Shown here one piece after another: positions 17,831-48,898 of a DNA stretch of 64,000 nt. The position numbers were made by a program, and so were the translations under genes. Where the stretch lies: the NCBI GenBank assembly GCA_944327085.1, contig CALVGG010000005.1, forward strand, positions 62,001-126,000. The letters are read 5' to 3'. The notes below the pieces were generated by a model. It was not told where the DNA came from. It saw only the letters and a list, made by a program, of their open reading frames with translations, and did no database searches. How positions within the stretch are numbered: position 1 is the stretch's first letter; every line of letters starts with the position of its first letter. Source of the stretch: an uncultured Elusimicrobiales bacterium. Its GTDB lineage: Bacteria; Elusimicrobiota; Elusimicrobia; Elusimicrobiales; Elusimicrobiaceae.

Positions 17831-17868
17831 AATAAAAAACGCCCCGCGGTTTATCATCCGCGGGGCGT
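17831..17868 (-). terminator. Intrinsic terminator of the 1785-residue protein gene
   Basis: A perfect 11-bp GC-rich stem (17839-17849 with 17858-17868), followed on the minus strand by TTTTTTATT, 17 bases after the stop codon. Confidence 0.93.
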
Positions 17869-17884
17869 ACAAAACATATTGCGT

Positions 17885-20800
17885 TTATTTTTCCGGAACT
17901 TGCACGGCCTTAGGCATAGAGGGCATTAAGGGCAACGGTTTGGCATATACGCCCACCCCTAAGTTAGGCAACTGCAGTTTGACCGGTTTTAACTGAGTGC
18001 GGTTCCACGTGTTATACAGCACACCCGCACCCACCGGCCAGGAAAGCCCTTTAAGCCAGCTGGCGGAATGACCTTTTTTCAGCACACCCAGCGAGCCTAA
18101 AGATATGGCCGCCCCAGCACCCAAGAACGCATACGACATACCCAACGAATAGGCCGGGACTTGCTTTTCCAAAATCAGCGGCCCGTTATCGTGTTCGTCG
18201 CTCTTCATTATATCCATTGCTCCGCTAACCACCACCGGCGGCACCGCCATACCTATATTGGCGGCGGAAAACACCGTGCGGGAAGTAGCTTTATACACGT
18301 CTTTAATGCGTTTTTGTTCTTTTAAGTCTTTAGCGGCCTTTACAGCGTTTACCACTTCGTCCGAGCCCATATAGCGCGCCGTGGCCAAGTTTTGTAAAGA
18401 CTGGAACACATTGGCCGTACCCAAGCCAAGCAACGTGCCGCCGGCAATCAGTTTGCTCCAGTTCCAGGCGTCCATATTGCCGTTTTGATCTTTGTCAGCA
18501 GACAGCAACAACCCGCCGCCCGCAGCAGAAGACAATAAGGAGTATTGCAGCATTTTGGTATAGCGCACTTTTTCATCCGCGCCGAACAGGTTTAAAATCG
18601 GCCCGGCTTTCCAACGCGCGATGAACGGAGCCACCAACAACGCACCGCCGGTAAAGGTGGCAGTCAGGTTTTTCTTTTGATGGCTTTGATTTAAATTCCC
18701 GGCAGAAATATTGAACATATCGGCCGAAGCCCACTGCTGCGCCGCCGGTTTTAACATTTGGTTGGTAGCCTTGTTGTAAGCGGCGGATTCAAAACCGGTA
18801 AGCATAAACGCGCCGGCCATCATGGGCAACATGGCACGGCGGCCCACCAATTTATAGGCGTTTAAAGATTCATCTTTTAAGGTCTTCCACACTTTGCCTT
18901 TGGCAAATTTAAAGCCTTTTTCGCGCCCGATGGTGCGGTTAATGCTGGAAAAATGCATAATGCCCAAAGCCGCCAAGGAGCCCGCTTCCAACACCGGGAA
19001 GGAAGAGGCAAATGTAGGCGGTTTAGAGGCAAAACCGTCGCCATTTTCGGAATATAAACCGCCAAATACCAGGGGCGGAACGAGCAGCGCCGCAGAGCCG
19101 ATATTTTTGGCCAACATACTCTTTACCAGGCCCGTGCTGCCGCTGGCCTTACCAATCAGCGTGTTTAAGCTGGCGCGCAGCAAGGCGGAAGATAAGCCGA
19201 TGGCGCCCGCAGAAATATACAACCAATTATAACTGGGCAAGCCTTCAGGCCGTACGTTGGAAGTTTTATCTTGAGGGGTACTCCACACAAAACCGCCCAT
19301 TAACGGGAATGCCAACCCGGCCGAAGAGATAGCCAACGCCGCTTTGGTAATGCCCAAGGCACCCCAGCGTTTTACAAACGGGGTAAATACAGGGGCAAAG
19401 AAAGACGGAATAAACGGCAGGCCAAGCGTAATCCAAATTTTATCGGTTTCGCTGGCGCCATAAGGTTTGTTGCTGGGGTAGTATTCTTCCAAAGAGGCCA
19501 ACAACCCGGTGGAGGCAGAGCTTAAGCTGAGCCCGGTGGCCACATACATACGCCACAAACCCGTTTTTTTGGCGTCCACCACTAAAGAAAGAGGTTCCGT
19601 TACTTTGCTGGTGCGAAGCGCATTGACCAAGTTCCCCGCCTCCCCTTTGGGAATACCAAAGAAGAACGGATTTTTAATGTTTACGGTTTTGTTGGCCTTA
19701 TCCAAGAAAGAGAAACTGTTTTTGCCAACCACCAGTTTGTCCACCCCTAAACCGCCCATATTAAAGAATTTGTCGGCCTTTACCATCATGGGTACGGCTT
19801 GCAAAGAGCCGTCATCCAAGCGGCGGTACACCTGCAATAAAGAGGAGAAACGTTCTTCTTTATCACCGGTGAGCATCACGCGGGAGGCAAGCAGGCGGTT
19901 GTCTTTAAGCATCAGGGCACGGGCTTTTTCTTCCGCGCCGCGGCGCCAGCTTTGCGGATACCAGGAAAATTTTTCCAGCCAATTCTGCATGTTGTTCCAG
20001 CCGCGCATAAGCAGGCCCTGCTTGGCATAGGGAGACATCGTAACCATTAACGGATCGGAAGCCCCTGTCACCGCATTGGCCAATTTGGGCAATTCCCCGG
20101 GGCGGGCAATAATTTTAAAGTTTTCCAACTTAAAGGGCTTATCGGCCGCGTTAATCATGGAAAGGGTATATTCGCCCGTTTTTTCTTTGATAAAATCCAC
20201 ATGTTGATAGAACCGGTCAGACACACCGTTTAAACGCGGGTCCATCCGCAGGGTTAACGGCAGGGCCTGGGTGGAACCATCATCTAAACGCACAAAGGCG
20301 GCGCGGGCTTCATATTCCACAGACGGCTTACGCGTAACGGCTGACTGCAAACTGCGGGCCGCTTTGGGAGCTTTGATAGAAAAGTCCCGGCGCAAATTCC
20401 AAGCCAAAGTTTCGGTAAGTTTTAATTTTTCAGCCGGATTTAAGAAAGTGCTTTCATTAAGTACAACCCCTACTTTTTTGCCCAAAATTTGGCGGTATAC
20501 GGCATTACCGCGCAAAGCGTGGTAGGCATCGTTCCCAAAAGGAACAAAGCTTAAAAAGCGGCGCAGATTGCGGTTGCGGTACATATAAGACTGGTCCGCC
20601 AGTTCAACCGCTTTATCCAACACCTGGCTGGTTTCTTTGGCAAAGCCTGTGCTTACGCCCGCCGTTTTTAAATTATGCAAAACGGCCGCCGTGTTTATTT
20701 TGCCGTTGGGCATTAAGCTTACCGTTTTGCTAAGTTCCTGCGGAACGGTAAACGCTTTATTGCCGCGGATAAAGCCGGCAAATTCAAACATAGCGCGCTG

Positions 20801-23242
20801 ATTGGGCGTGATGGCAAAAGCATTGCCGCCGGCCGGAACAGCCGCATAAAGTTCTTTAAGCCATAAATTGCGGTACAAAGCGTCTTTACCAAAAAGACGG
20901 GTCTTAAAGGAAAAAGCCTCCCGCATAAACTGCTCATTTACATTAGTGGCGGCCACATCTAAGCGCTGTTGGGCTTGGGCCGCCACACGGGAAGATGCCA
21001 CTAAATTTTTGTCCAGCACAATTTTACCCGCTTCAAAACGGGCCGTGGACAAGGCCGAAGATACGGCCGTGCGGGTGCGGAACATATTGGAACCAAACTC
21101 GGCCGAGGCAAACATAGGAGCCTGTGCCCGGATAACACCCTCTAAGCGGGAAGCGATTTTGGCGTTTAAATTACGCGTCCAGTTAGGCCGGTGTATTTTA
21201 GACAATTCCGTCATTAAAGGGGCGGCATCGCCCAAGTTTTTAAAGCTGTTTAACACGCGGGTGCGCCCGGCCAGTTTACCCACAGAGGCCAACGCCCCGT
21301 TACCCAAAAGTTTCATCCAGCGGGCGGCTTTGGGCAGGTTGCGCACGATATCGGCCCCAAACCATACCAACATGGCCACATCACACGCGGCCGCGCCGAT
21401 ACCCCACCATTTGTTGCGGTCATAGGAGCTGCGTTTTAATACATAAATATTGTCGCCCTGTTTATAGGGTTTAATGTCATAGCCTTCTTTCACCTGTTTG
21501 CCTTTTACGGCCGCGGCAAACGCGGTGGAAAGTTTATTATCCAAGGCCATTTCTTCATCGGCGGTTAAATCCCCCATGGTATTTAAAAACAAATAGCGGG
21601 AGAATATGGCCGCCGGCGGCAAACCTGTGTTTTGGCTTAAAGCGGCCAGGGCCTGGCGGCTTTGGGCCACGGTGGAGGCGCCTTTTTGGGCTTCTTCTTT
21701 CGTAACGGTAATAACGCCCTTGCCGGCACCCGCATTGCTGAAATACTGCCCGGCACGCGTAATAATATTAGAGGGAGTATATTTTTCTGCCCCGCTTTTA
21801 CCGCTAAATAAAGCACCCGCTAAAAAGGGCAAAATGGTCTCACAATTAATAAAAAATTCATTGCCGCGGCGGGTTACCATACAACGGCCTACACCATAGT
21901 CTTGCAATACTTGCAGGCTGTCTTCGCTGCCTTCGGCCGCCAACATAAGGGCTAACTCTTCCCAGGCGTTGGAGTAGGTGTTGCCTTCCCCTTTAAATTG
22001 GGCCCGTTTAGAAACCTCGCCCAAATAACGCTGGTTGCCGCCTAACTCATACTTGGCAAAATCGTGAAATTCAGAAAAAGACAACGGAAAAACGGTATTG
22101 TGTTCCTTTTGAACGGCGGAATGTAAAATGCCGCCCACCGCTTTGGCCTCCCCCATAGACAACAAGGCCGAGGCACCGGCCAACAATACCGGGCCGGCCA
22201 CGCCATTAATATTTAAATGGCGTTCTACAAATTCGCTCACTGCCATAGAGGCATCAAAACTGCCCTTGCCCACCATACCTAAGCCGGACATGGCAGAAAA
22301 GGCCCGCTCGCACGAATAGGCGGATTTGGGGTTTAAGCAGCCGTCATTGGCTTGCAAGTCTTTAATAAAAAGGTCGGTCAGCAGGTCTTGTTCGTCTTGG
22401 GTAAAAAAGCTTTCGCCTTTTAAAGTACGGTAAGACAACAAACGCGGCGCAATGGTAATTACATAAGAAAGCGCTTTTTGCGGGTGTTTGTTATATAAAG
22501 AAAGCAATTCTTGTTTTTTAGCCAAAATGGCCTGTTCGTTTTGTTCGTCCAGATTCTTTTGGAAAGAGGCAAAGCGGTCTTTGGCGCCCATTAAGGCGGA
22601 GCGTTCCTCCGCCGCCAGCTGCGCTAAGGATTCCCGTTTCCAGGTGATTAATTTTTTGGTGTATTTAGAGGAAATGTCCTGTATTTCTTTTTCTATTTTT
22701 TGCAGGCGTTCCTGTTTTTTGGCAGCAGGCTCGGGTTCTTGCGGGGTGCTTTCCTGTATTCTTTGGGCTTTCAGGGCGGCAATTTTTTCATTAAATTGGG
22801 CAAGGGTTTTGTCATACTGGGAGGTAATATAGTCCCGCGTGGCGGCGGCTTCTTTTTCAATGGCGGCTTTATCTTGTTTTACAAATGCATCAAAAGCGGG
22901 TTCTTTGGATTGGGTAGAAAATGAAAAAAGAGGGAAGAAAAAGTTTTTAATGGATTCTAATTGTTTTAAAACAGGGTCTTTCTGTATTCTTTCTTGATTA
23001 AAACGTTGGAGGGCGGCTTCAAGGTGGGCGGAGGAATAAACAAAAGTGTTGTCTCTGGCGGCGGTAGTTTTTTCTTTAATAATCTTTTCTAGTTCTTCTG
23101 AGGAAATATTTAGTTTATGTTTGGAAGCGGAAACAGCTTGGGCGGCGGCTTCACCGGTTAGGTTAAAAATCATTACTAGCGCTACAATCAAAGACACAAA
23201 ACGGCGGGACAACTCTAATAAAGATACAGGTTGGTTTTTCAT
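17885..23242 (-). CDS. Giant 1785-residue exported/membrane protein of unknown function
   Basis: The protein starts with a signal peptide (cleavage near AAAQA, residue 36). A charged coiled-coil stretch follows at about 95-260 and a helical region at about 260-560. One hydrophobic segment is near 617-640 (VAMLVWFGADIV). A duplicated module occurs at about 980 (VRLDDGSTQALPL) and about 1140 (RRLDDGSLQAVPM), each followed by a beta-rich stretch. From about 1230 to the end there are about ten to twelve hydrophobic helices with the look of a major facilitator transporter, including FTPFVKRWGALGITK. No enzyme motif is recognised. It is monocistronic with its own promoter and terminator. A polytopic transporter-like domain fused to about 1200 mostly extracytoplasmic residues is very unusual. 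I do not know its function. Confidence 0.85.
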   Translation of the reverse strand: MKNQPVSLLELSRRFVSLIVALVMIFNLTGEAAAQAVSASKHKLNISSEELEKIIKEKTTAARDNTFVYSSAHLEAALQRFNQERIQKDPVLKQLESIKNFFFPLFSFSTQSKEPAFDAFVKQDKAAIEKEAAATRDYITSQYDKTLAQFNEKIAALKAQRIQESTPQEPEPAAKKQERLQKIEKEIQDISSKYTKKLITWKRESLAQLAAEERSALMGAKDRFASFQKNLDEQNEQAILAKKQELLSLYNKHPQKALSYVITIAPRLLSYRTLKGESFFTQDEQDLLTDLFIKDLQANDGCLNPKSAYSCERAFSAMSGLGMVGKGSFDASMAVSEFVERHLNINGVAGPVLLAGASALLSMGEAKAVGGILHSAVQKEHNTVFPLSFSEFHDFAKYELGGNQRYLGEVSKRAQFKGEGNTYSNAWEELALMLAAEGSEDSLQVLQDYGVGRCMVTRRGNEFFINCETILPFLAGALFSGKSGAEKYTPSNIITRAGQYFSNAGAGKGVITVTKEEAQKGASTVAQSRQALAALSQNTGLPPAAIFSRYLFLNTMGDLTADEEMALDNKLSTAFAAAVKGKQVKEGYDIKPYKQGDNIYVLKRSSYDRNKWWGIGAAACDVAMLVWFGADIVRNLPKAARWMKLLGNGALASVGKLAGRTRVLNSFKNLGDAAPLMTELSKIHRPNWTRNLNAKIASRLEGVIRAQAPMFASAEFGSNMFRTRTAVSSALSTARFEAGKIVLDKNLVASSRVAAQAQQRLDVAATNVNEQFMREAFSFKTRLFGKDALYRNLWLKELYAAVPAGGNAFAITPNQRAMFEFAGFIRGNKAFTVPQELSKTVSLMPNGKINTAAVLHNLKTAGVSTGFAKETSQVLDKAVELADQSYMYRNRNLRRFLSFVPFGNDAYHALRGNAVYRQILGKKVGVVLNESTFLNPAEKLKLTETLAWNLRRDFSIKAPKAARSLQSAVTRKPSVEYEARAAFVRLDDGSTQALPLTLRMDPRLNGVSDRFYQHVDFIKEKTGEYTLSMINAADKPFKLENFKIIARPGELPKLANAVTGASDPLMVTMSPYAKQGLLMRGWNNMQNWLEKFSWYPQSWRRGAEEKARALMLKDNRLLASRVMLTGDKEERFSSLLQVYRRLDDGSLQAVPMMVKADKFFNMGGLGVDKLVVGKNSFSFLDKANKTVNIKNPFFFGIPKGEAGNLVNALRTSKVTEPLSLVVDAKKTGLWRMYVATGLSLSSASTGLLASLEEYYPSNKPYGASETDKIWITLGLPFIPSFFAPVFTPFVKRWGALGITKAALAISSAGLAFPLMGGFVWSTPQDKTSNVRPEGLPSYNWLYISAGAIGLSSALLRASLNTLIGKASGSTGLVKSMLAKNIGSAALLVPPLVFGGLYSENGDGFASKPPTFASSFPVLEAGSLAALGIMHFSSINRTIGREKGFKFAKGKVWKTLKDESLNAYKLVGRRAMLPMMAGAFMLTGFESAAYNKATNQMLKPAAQQWASADMFNISAGNLNQSHQKKNLTATFTGGALLVAPFIARWKAGPILNLFGADEKVRYTKMLQYSLLSSAAGGGLLLSADKDQNGNMDAWNWSKLIAGGTLLGLGTANVFQSLQNLATARYMGSDEVVNAVKAAKDLKEQKRIKDVYKATSRTVFSAANIGMAVPPVVVSGAMDIMKSDEHDNGPLILEKQVPAYSLGMSYAFLGAGAAISLGSLGVLKKGHSASWLKGLSWPVGAGVLYNTWNRTQLKPVKLQLPNLGVGVYAKPLPLMPSMPKAVQVPEK

Positions 23243-23264: not shown

Positions 23265-23295
23265 ATTATAAAACAGAAAGTTCCTTCTCTCTCAA
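23265..23295 (-). promoter_or_regulatory. Probable promoter of the 1785-residue protein gene
   Basis: A perfect TATAAT (23270-23265) with TTGAGA (23295-23290) 19 bases upstream, a slightly long spacer. An AAGGA ribosome site lies before the ATG at 23242. Confidence 0.5.
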
Positions 23296-46754: not shown

Positions 46755-46773
46755 TTTGCCCCATATGGGATTT
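46755..46773. repeat. attR core, inside tRNA-Arg 3' end
   Basis: TTTGCCCCATATGGGATTT, identical to attL. It covers the 3' acceptor strand and the T-arm end of the tRNA, so the phage restores the gene on insertion. Confidence 0.88.
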
Positions 46774-46829
46774 GAACCCATACCACCGGTTCCGAAGACC
46801 GGTACTCTATCCAGTTGAGCTAACGGGGC
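46757..46829 (-). tRNA. tRNA-Arg (anticodon UCG)
   Basis: A 73-nt cloverleaf: acceptor GCCCCGT with ATGGGGC, D-arm GCTC, anticodon stem CCGGT with ACCGG and loop CTTCGGA (anticodon TCG, reading CGA), T-arm ATGGG with CCCAT around TTCAAAT. The CCA end is not encoded. Its last 17 bases are provided by the prophage att core. Confidence 0.95.
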
Positions 46830-48313: not shown

Positions 48314-48898
48314 TTACATAATCCGCCCGTTTTTACTGCCGCTTATGGCGCGGCATAAAGGGGAGGCTTCTGCATTTTCATCAAAAGATTTAAACCCGAA
48401 AAATCCATAATCCGGGCGAAAATCCTCCGTACACCAAACTAGTAAAGTTCCTTCAGGCGGGGTAAGCGTCATTAAAATAGCAAATTGTTTGTTACTATAA
48501 GTGGCTTTAACGGGGTAGGCTTTTCCCATTAATTTGCCGGTGGCGGACAAGCCGCCCTCTATATAAAACTGCATATGTTTACCGCGGAAGTTATTGTATC
48601 CGTAACCAAAATTGCCCCCCATATTAGGCAGTTCAATATCAAGCACATCTAAAGAGCGGTTGTATTTATTATTAGCCAAATAATAGCTTCTCTCGGCATC
48701 GGCCAGTTGTTTAAATAAAGTAACCGCTTCCGAGGCACGCGCCTTGGCCACTGCTTTTTCATATTGCGGCAACGCCACCGCCGCCAATATGCCAATAATC
48801 AGCACCACCACCAACAGTTCTATTAACGTAAAGCCTTTGTATGGGCCGGCGGAGAAGTTTTTTAAACGGGCTATTTGCCCCATATACCAGTTTTTCAT
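48314..48898 (-). CDS. Type IV prepilin-like protein
   Basis: A 194-residue pilin. The prepilin leader is 22 residues and basic, cut after Gly22 to leave Phe23 as the methylated first residue with Glu at +5 (FTLIELLVVVLIIGILAAVALPQ). The globular part has two cysteines, in LVWCTEDF and PLCRAISG, in the D-loop style. The gene stands alone, in reverse direction, between ruvC and ruvA. It has an AGAGG site and a palindrome in the promoter region. No pilus assembly genes are in the window, so it may be one of several scattered pilins. Confidence 0.93.
   Translation of the reverse strand: MKNWYMGQIARLKNFSAGPYKGFTLIELLVVVLIIGILAAVALPQYEKAVAKARASEAVTLFKQLADAERSYYLANNKYNRSLDVLDIELPNMGGNFGYGYNNFRGKHMQFYIEGGLSATGKLMGKAYPVKATYSNKQFAILMTLTPPEGTLLVWCTEDFRPDYGFFGFKSFDENAEASPLCRAISGSKNGRIM

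What the first reader, a model, noticed from the sequence alone, without database searches (positions are those of the whole stretch)
17885..23242. A 1785-residue protein fusing a transporter-like domain to a huge exported region
Signal peptide, coiled coil, long helical part, duplicated RLDDGS beta modules, and then a roughly 550-residue multi-helix end with major facilitator character. I know no described protein with this plan. It has its own promoter and terminator and is one of the largest chromosomal genes here. It could be a lineage-specific envelope machine.
Basis: partly seen in the sequence, partly recalled or inferred. Interest (0 to 1): 0.65.

Follow-up and report, generated by a model that had tools for sequence, protein, structure and literature searches.

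The report
Giant transporter with fused exported domain
A very large membrane protein of a gut bacterium joins an exported helical domain to a transporter-type (MFS) membrane domain; it belongs to a family of such giants found so far only in one bacterial family, and its substrate and purpose are unknown.

Summary
The 1785-residue ORF is real, but on the minus strand. It is intact and under purifying selection in five related genomes, at a conserved chromosomal place. An AlphaFold model of residues 1010-1785 matches solved MFS transporters clearly (VIA-align Z 28.4 over 357 residues). One relative passes Pfam's MFS_1 cut-off, although the window protein itself does not match it. The exported part is probably only residues 36-612 (even cysteine counts in 26 of 27 relatives). 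A helix near 624 then appears to cross the membrane, so 636-1224, beta modules included, is best placed in the cytoplasm, leading into a normally oriented MFS; cysteine depletion there argues somewhat against this. A profile of the protein hits 65 of 340 Elusimicrobiota genomes, all in the window's own family. Paralogues carry two MFS domains or kinase, Zeta-toxin-like, protease, TPR or response-regulator domains. Most likely it is an inner-membrane secondary transporter whose exported domain captures substrate or docks a partner; substrate unknown. New variant of a known kind: MFS inside a lineage-specific giant architecture.

The parts
17885..23242 (-). Giant gene, 1785 aa
   Evidence: intact in 5 of 5 close genomes, dN/dS about 0.13 against the nearest
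23265..23295 (-). Putative promoter TTGAGA-19-TATAAT
   Evidence: sequence; conserved block in 5 aligned upstream regions; not found by the 16-18 nt scan
23138..23242 (-). Signal peptide, residues 1-35
   Evidence: hydropathy peak at 24, basic n-region; A34 and Q35 invariant in the 11-row alignment
22487..22906 (-). Coiled-coil hairpin, residues 113-252
   Evidence: AlphaFold, pLDDT mostly 77-93
21443..22483 (-). Alpha-solenoid domain, residues 254-600, exported; cysteine pairs 302/311 and 454/467
   Evidence: general HEAT/ARM resemblance; paired cysteines
21341..21409 (-). Membrane-crossing helix, residues 612-634, with D621 and D631
   Evidence: hydropathy 1.73 (family mean 1.42) and basic flank after it; D621 and D631 invariant in the 17-row alignment
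20291..21337 (-). Basic linker, residues 636-984, probably cytoplasmic
   Evidence: 636-1230 net charge +6.4% against -0.1% for 36-612
20030..20290 (-). Beta module 1, residues 985-1071
   Evidence: strands (the model starts at residue 1010)
19577..19822 (-). Beta module 2, residues 1141-1222; P1198-K1199 in 30 of 30 aligned domains
18080..19573 (-). MFS domain, 12 helices, residues 1224-1721
   Evidence: relative L059 passes MFS_1 cut-off
18788..18790 (-). E1485, conserved acid in helix 7
   Evidence: 30 of 30 aligned domains
17888..18079 (-). C-terminal tail, residues 1722-1785
   Evidence: low confidence from model residue 714 on
17839..17868 (-). Intrinsic terminator
   Evidence: 11-pair stem with 10 GC pairs and T run

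Best explanation
An inner-membrane protein of the major facilitator fold with a large exported helper domain. The signal peptide sends residues 36-612 (coiled-coil hairpin plus alpha-solenoid, held by one or two disulfides) to the periplasm; the helix at 612-634 crosses back; a basic linker with two tandem beta modules sits in the cytoplasm right before helix 1 of a normally oriented 12-helix MFS core. Shown by computation: fold, module duplication, family distribution, conserved residues within the membrane domain. Inferred: topology. Inferred with less confidence: that it moves a small molecule, coupled to protons or another ion through residues such as E1485, with the exported domain capturing substrate or docking an envelope partner and the beta modules gating from inside. 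Architecture about 0.85; transport as the main job about 0.55.
For: MFS fold: VIA-align Z 28.4, rmsd 3.1, 357 residues to VMAT2 and Z 27.5, 356 residues to SotB; Foldseek 258 matches at E<=0.001, the 50 shown being MFS-type transporters. MFS_1 at 44.9 bits over the 33.4 cut-off in full-length relative L059; 9 of 27 relatives match MFS_1 at E<=10. Conserved residues in 30 of 30 domains, including paralogues with other overall plans: K1379, E1485, R1543, N1611, G1294; N1360 in 29 of 30. The MFS part is the most constrained (dN/dS 0.035/0.404 against 0.106/0.683 for 36-612), unlike a mere anchor. Topology: putative inner loops 16.0% K+R, outer 8.8%; even N-domain cysteine numbers in 26 of 27, of which 23 have any. 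The exported domain with its membrane helix also occurs in relatives without an MFS domain, so it is a portable module.
Against: The window protein itself has no significant Pfam, NCBIfam or PDB sequence match, and hhalign against 8 ordinary MFS proteins of the same genome is weak (Prob 17%, E 0.0015). C-terminal model mean pLDDT 66 from 18 sequences. The supposed cytoplasmic stretch is nearly free of cysteine (2 in 13,208 residues in 27 proteins; 52 in 3,716 in 12 window proteins taken as cytoplasmic), which would suit an exported segment; the MFS part is depleted as well (5 cysteines in 27 proteins), so the sign is ambiguous. No substrate, partner gene or operon.
Confidence: 0.6

Rival explanations
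1. Receptor or transceptor: the MFS core no longer transports but senses a ligand, and the exported and cytoplasmic parts pass on the signal.
For: Relatives put other outputs on similar frames: a 4510-aa protein with Response_reg, TPR, Ank and an MFS match, kinase-like and Zeta_toxin domains next to MFS_1; giants with the same N-terminal module but no MFS.
Against: The window protein has no recognisable output domain, and the MFS part keeps conserved charges in its helices and is the most constrained part.
Confidence: 0.2
2. Fused periplasmic adaptor of an efflux route: the coiled-coil hairpin reaches an outer-membrane channel, as separate adaptors do for MFS pumps.
For: Long helical hairpin 113-252 on an exported domain joined to an MFS pump fold.
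Against: The N-terminal model is almost all helical, without the lipoyl and beta-barrel domains of adaptors (adaptor anatomy recalled); no channel gene beside it.
Confidence: 0.12
3. Structural scaffold: the MFS domain is a passive multi-pass anchor for a large envelope or cytoplasmic scaffold.
For: Most of the protein is not transporter; giants with the same N-terminal module seem to use only one membrane helix.
Against: Strongest selection on the MFS part and 30-of-30 conserved polar residues inside it.
Confidence: 0.08

Closest known systems
Major facilitator superfamily transporters (Pfam MFS_1; best structural matches VMAT2, SotB, SV2A)
   Same: 12 helices, MFS fold over 357 residues, basic loop with conserved G between helices 2 and 3
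   Different: Preceded by signal peptide, exported 577-residue domain, extra membrane helix and two beta modules; no MFS_1 match of the window protein itself
LplT-PlsC-Aas fusions (also in this genome, G000:C1:140831; name recalled, not tested by a family search)
   Same: MFS domain fused to other domains in one large protein
   Different: There the MFS domain is at the N-terminus and the partner looks like a cytoplasmic acyltransferase/synthetase; no exported N-terminal domain
MFS proteins with a large domain on the non-cytoplasmic side (SV2A; PepT1/2 extracellular domain, PMC4597091, seen in the search listing only)
   Same: Substantial domain on the outer side of an MFS core (recalled for SV2A)
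   Different: Theirs lies between membrane helices (recalled); here it is N-terminal with its own signal peptide and return helix
Huge proteins of Elusimicrobiota (PMC11573180, passages seen)
   Same: Phylum noted for a high propensity for proteins over 5000 aa; poorly characterised
   Different: The passages read do not describe MFS fusions or this family
ATP-grasp-MFS protein of another Elusimicrobiota family (G170, L137, 1048 aa)
   Same: Signal-peptide-like hydrophobic start (by eye) and C-terminal MFS_1
   Different: The middle is an ATP-grasp/L-amino acid ligase-like enzyme

Membership tests
Major facilitator superfamily | 12 transmembrane helices in two halves | tested here: met
   12 hydropathy peaks 1242-1710; helices in the model
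Major facilitator superfamily | MFS fold | tested here: met
   Z 28.4 over 357 residues; 493 of 999 chains with Z>=8; Foldseek
Major facilitator superfamily | Sequence profile match | tested here: inconclusive
   none for the window protein; 44.9 bits over cut-off for homologue L059; weak hhalign
Major facilitator superfamily | Motif A in the loop between helices 2 and 3 (recalled) | tested here: inconclusive
   G1294 in 30 of 30 with basic residues before it, but the usual acidic residue is not conserved
Major facilitator superfamily | Transport by alternating access | not testable with these tools
   needs biochemistry
LplT-Aas type fusion | Acyltransferase and AMP-binding domains after an N-terminal MFS | tested here: not met
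   MFS is C-terminal; no such domains found
Periplasmic adaptor (EmrA/HlyD type) | Lipoyl and beta-barrel domains around the hairpin | tested here: not met
   N-terminal model almost all helical
Phage or plasmid cargo | Carried on mobile elements | tested here: not met
   no match in phages, plasmids, viral contigs; same chromosomal place without the prophage in relatives L033, L034, L035

The most novel reading that the evidence does not exclude
Gut Elusimicrobiaceae possess a large, mosaic class of envelope proteins in which one exported, disulfide-held N-terminal module on a membrane helix is joined to interchangeable inner-membrane and cytoplasmic outputs: one or two MFS cores, kinase-like, Zeta-toxin-like, protease or response-regulator domains. 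They work as ligand-gated transporters or transceptors, and recombination between near-identical modules swaps outputs in some species.
Probability: 0.25. Interest if true: 0.8.

Novelty: new variant of a known kind. Interest (0 to 1): 0.5.

Why it matters
MFS transporters are among the best studied membrane proteins and are usually compact. Here a bacterial family with genomes of about 1.5 Mb spends several kilobases per gene on MFS cores fused to exported and cytoplasmic modules, in several copies. If they transport, they offer a transporter with a built-in periplasmic receptor; if they signal, a new transceptor design. No family model covers the window protein, so it is probably annotated as hypothetical.

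Tried and rejected
Prophage cargo: the gene sits next to a prophage in the window, but in relatives L033, L034 and L035 it lies directly beside tRNA-Arg and yebC without it, and a 19-bp repeat of the tRNA 3' end (46755 and 23419) marks the insertion. Rejected.

Defence system: no PADLOC match for the window protein or two larger paralogues. Solved-structure relatives by sequence: none significant. N-terminal fold: no Foldseek match under E 0.001 (best 0.011) and VIA-align best Z 9.0, under the level its note gives for helical repeats; no efflux adaptor appeared among the 50 rows shown by either.

Automatic choice of the membrane helix by strongest peak mis-picked another hydrophobic segment in several of 43 proteins, giving 33 of 43 even cysteine counts; recounted by alignment A1 for 27 proteins, 26 of 27. 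Proteins outside A1 were not recounted.

Literature: searches with Elusimicrobi + major facilitator + giant (1 paper, unrelated title), Elusimicrobium minutum + genome (78, 15 listed), Elusimicrobi + giant + genes (65, 12 listed), Elusimicrobiaceae + gut + transporter (21, 10 listed), giant genes/Omnitroph/cell wall degradation (12, 8 listed), MFS fusion terms and LplT/Aas terms showed no description of this plan; only listings, plus passages of PMC11573180 and PMC11257099, were read. The library lacks most subscription papers.

The MFS_1 census of 16 family genomes and 16 others was cut off by the output limit, so no count of giant MFS genes per genome is given. Of the frames over 1000 aa in the second set, five were fetched (G100 C34 and C60, G081, G300, G170): G100 C34 and G081 end like acyl-ACP synthetase fusions by eye, the G100 C60 frame resolved into ordinary ORFs of about 500 aa, G300 and G170 are other MFS fusions. 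The other large frames there (in G190, G150, G102) were not fetched.

Full report
The observation. The ORF at 17885-23242 is on the minus strand, starts with ATG and codes for 1785 residues. Four close relatives in other genomes have it full length (1780-1787 residues, no stop), at 88, 75, 75 and 68% identity. Synonymous changes far outnumber others: dN/dS 0.068/0.526 against the closest and 0.248/1.472 against the farthest of the four. The MFS part (1225-1721) is the most constrained in every comparison. It has a strong terminator and a conserved upstream element, TTGAGA-19-TATAAT, although the spacer is longer than the scan accepts.

Anatomy. Residues 1-35 form a signal peptide. An AlphaFold model of residues 1-720 from 17 sequences (mean pLDDT 73.8; blocks from about 80 to 610 mostly 77-94, with weaker stretches near 380-410 and 505) shows a coiled-coil hairpin (113-252), then an alpha-solenoid (254-600), then one long helix 598-646 holding the hydrophobic segment. 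The nearest solved folds are HEAT/ARM repeats, at levels common for any helical repeat. Residues 985-1071 and 1141-1222 are two copies of one beta module. A model of 1010-1785 from 18 sequences (mean pLDDT 66.1, pTM 0.61, no residue at 90 or more) gives the beta module and a 12-helix bundle. VIA-align puts the bundle on VMAT2 at Z 28.4 (rmsd 3.1, 357 residues) and on the bacterial antiporter SotB at Z 27.5 (356 residues); Foldseek's best is SV2A, E 2.9e-7. The match is of fold; sequence identity is 8-16% in the rows shown.

Sequence support for MFS is indirect. The window protein has no Pfam match to MFS_1 even at E 10. Of 27 aligned full-length relatives (A1), 9 match MFS_1 at E<=10; L059 passes the curated cut-off, 44.9 against 33.4 bits, over positions 5-323 of 347. 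Profile comparison with 8 ordinary MFS proteins of the same genome is weak (Prob 17%, E 0.0015), but with the paralogous giants of the two-MFS group it is strong over the beta modules and the first half of the bundle (Prob 99.3, E 3e-20). Across 30 aligned domains, K1379, E1485 (helix 7), R1543, N1611 (helix 10), G1294 and P1198-K1199 of the beta module are in 30 of 30, N1360 (helix 4) in 29 of 30.

Topology. Cysteines 302/311 appear together in 11 of 18 proteins and 454/467 together in 14 of 18; the number of cysteines between the signal peptide and helix 612 is even in 26 of 27 proteins, 4 of them with none. This is the pattern of disulfides in an exported domain. The helix at 612-634 has D621 and D631 invariant in 17 of 17, hydropathy 1.73, and a basic stretch behind it. 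In the MFS part, loops predicted inside have 16.0% K+R and 5.9% D+E, loops outside 8.8% and 13.6%. All this fits: N-domain out, cross at 624, linker and beta modules in, MFS in its usual orientation. Against it, the linker is almost free of cysteine (2 in 13,208 residues) while 12 window proteins that I took as cytoplasmic have 52 in 3,716. The MFS part is depleted as well, so this may be a property of the whole protein.

Distribution. The single protein matches 38 of 340 Elusimicrobiota genomes, a profile of 27 relatives 65 of 340, all in the window's own family f1 and in 3 of 100 genera. A scan of the GTDB contig collection (two peptide patterns, so close relatives only) gave 15 loci, titled Elusimicrobiales, Elusimicrobiaceae, Elusimicrobia or uncultured bacterium; the titles that name a source are of yak and sheep gut. 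Phages, plasmids and viral contigs gave none. In the window's close relatives the place is fixed: cca - DUF - cation efflux - giant - tRNA-Arg - yebC - ruvC; L036-L038, at 28-29% identity, keep most of these neighbours. Further off (L039-L042) the neighbourhood differs, so no neighbour is a constant partner.

The wider family. The own genome has at least three further giants cut by contig ends: C1 (1393 residues left; beta modules and MFS matches), C11 (1169 residues) and C9 (848 residues, MFS). L100, the G075 relative of the C1 protein, which has two MFS_1 stretches, hits 74 of 340 genomes; 73 are in the same family, and the one outside (G234) is a 447-residue frame. Larger members in other genomes combine MFS_1 with Zeta_toxin, Kdo/WaaP-type kinase and Trypsin_2 domains (L122, 3667 residues), with a kinase domain (L117), or TPR, ankyrin, response-regulator and a partial MFS match (L120, 4510 residues). 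The window protein's N-terminal module also heads giants of 1693-3081 residues without recognisable MFS: eight by hydropathy (L051-L055, L057, L060, L061), of which three were scanned against Pfam.

How it works. The best reading is a secondary transporter with a built-in exported receptor or docking domain, energised through residues in the membrane such as E1485. Fold, duplication and distribution are shown by computation; topology is inferred from charge and cysteine patterns; transport, coupling and the roles of the exported and beta modules are inferred from fold and conservation alone. A transceptor role is the main rival, because relatives carry output domains.

Novelty. The MFS core is a known kind. 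The combination of signal peptide, exported coiled-coil and solenoid, return helix, twin beta modules and MFS was in none of the libraries searched nor in the paper searches listed. I therefore call it a new variant of a known kind, confined on present evidence to one bacterial family.

Noticed in passing
G000 contigs C1, C11 (ends), C7 and C4; L096, L139, L140, L100, L113: Twin giants with a shared middle: in the own genome two C-terminal parts on C1 and C11 begin with the same 77 bp (100%) and then diverge; in G075 the shared stretch is 381 bp at 96.9%. Six of the ten best hits of the N-terminal start in five genomes lie within 6 bp of a contig end; the contig lengths of the other four were not all checked. 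The shared stretch differs between species but is near-identical within each, which suggests gene conversion or cassette exchange.
   Followed up: partly
23419-46773: Prophage bounded by a 19-bp repeat of the 3' end of tRNA-Arg (46757-46829); it carries a 3117-aa MuF_C protein, a capsid protein and an M15-type peptidase. Its border lies about 177 bp upstream of the giant gene's start codon.
   Followed up: partly
L122, L120, L121, L117 (unnamed Elusimicrobiaceae genomes): Giants of 2494-4510 residues combine MFS or MFS-like cores with Zeta_toxin, Kdo-type kinase, AvrB_AvrC-like, trypsin-like, TPR, ankyrin or response-regulator domains; function unknown.
   Followed up: partly
L137 1185-4331 (G170) and L136 4397-8998 (G300): Other Elusimicrobiota families have different large MFS fusions: one with ATP-grasp and L-amino acid ligase C2 domains before the MFS, one with at least 1000 unmatched residues before it.
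   Followed up: no
L043, L044, L045: Two giants of this family stand in tandem, 217-365 bp apart; the downstream partner has no N-domain cysteines in the two that were aligned, so the pair may form a heteromer.
   Followed up: no
48314-48898 and relatives L033, L036, L037: Type IV pilin-like ORFs (GFTLIELLVVVLIIGILAA) vary in number between ruvC and ruvA from genome to genome.
   Followed up: no
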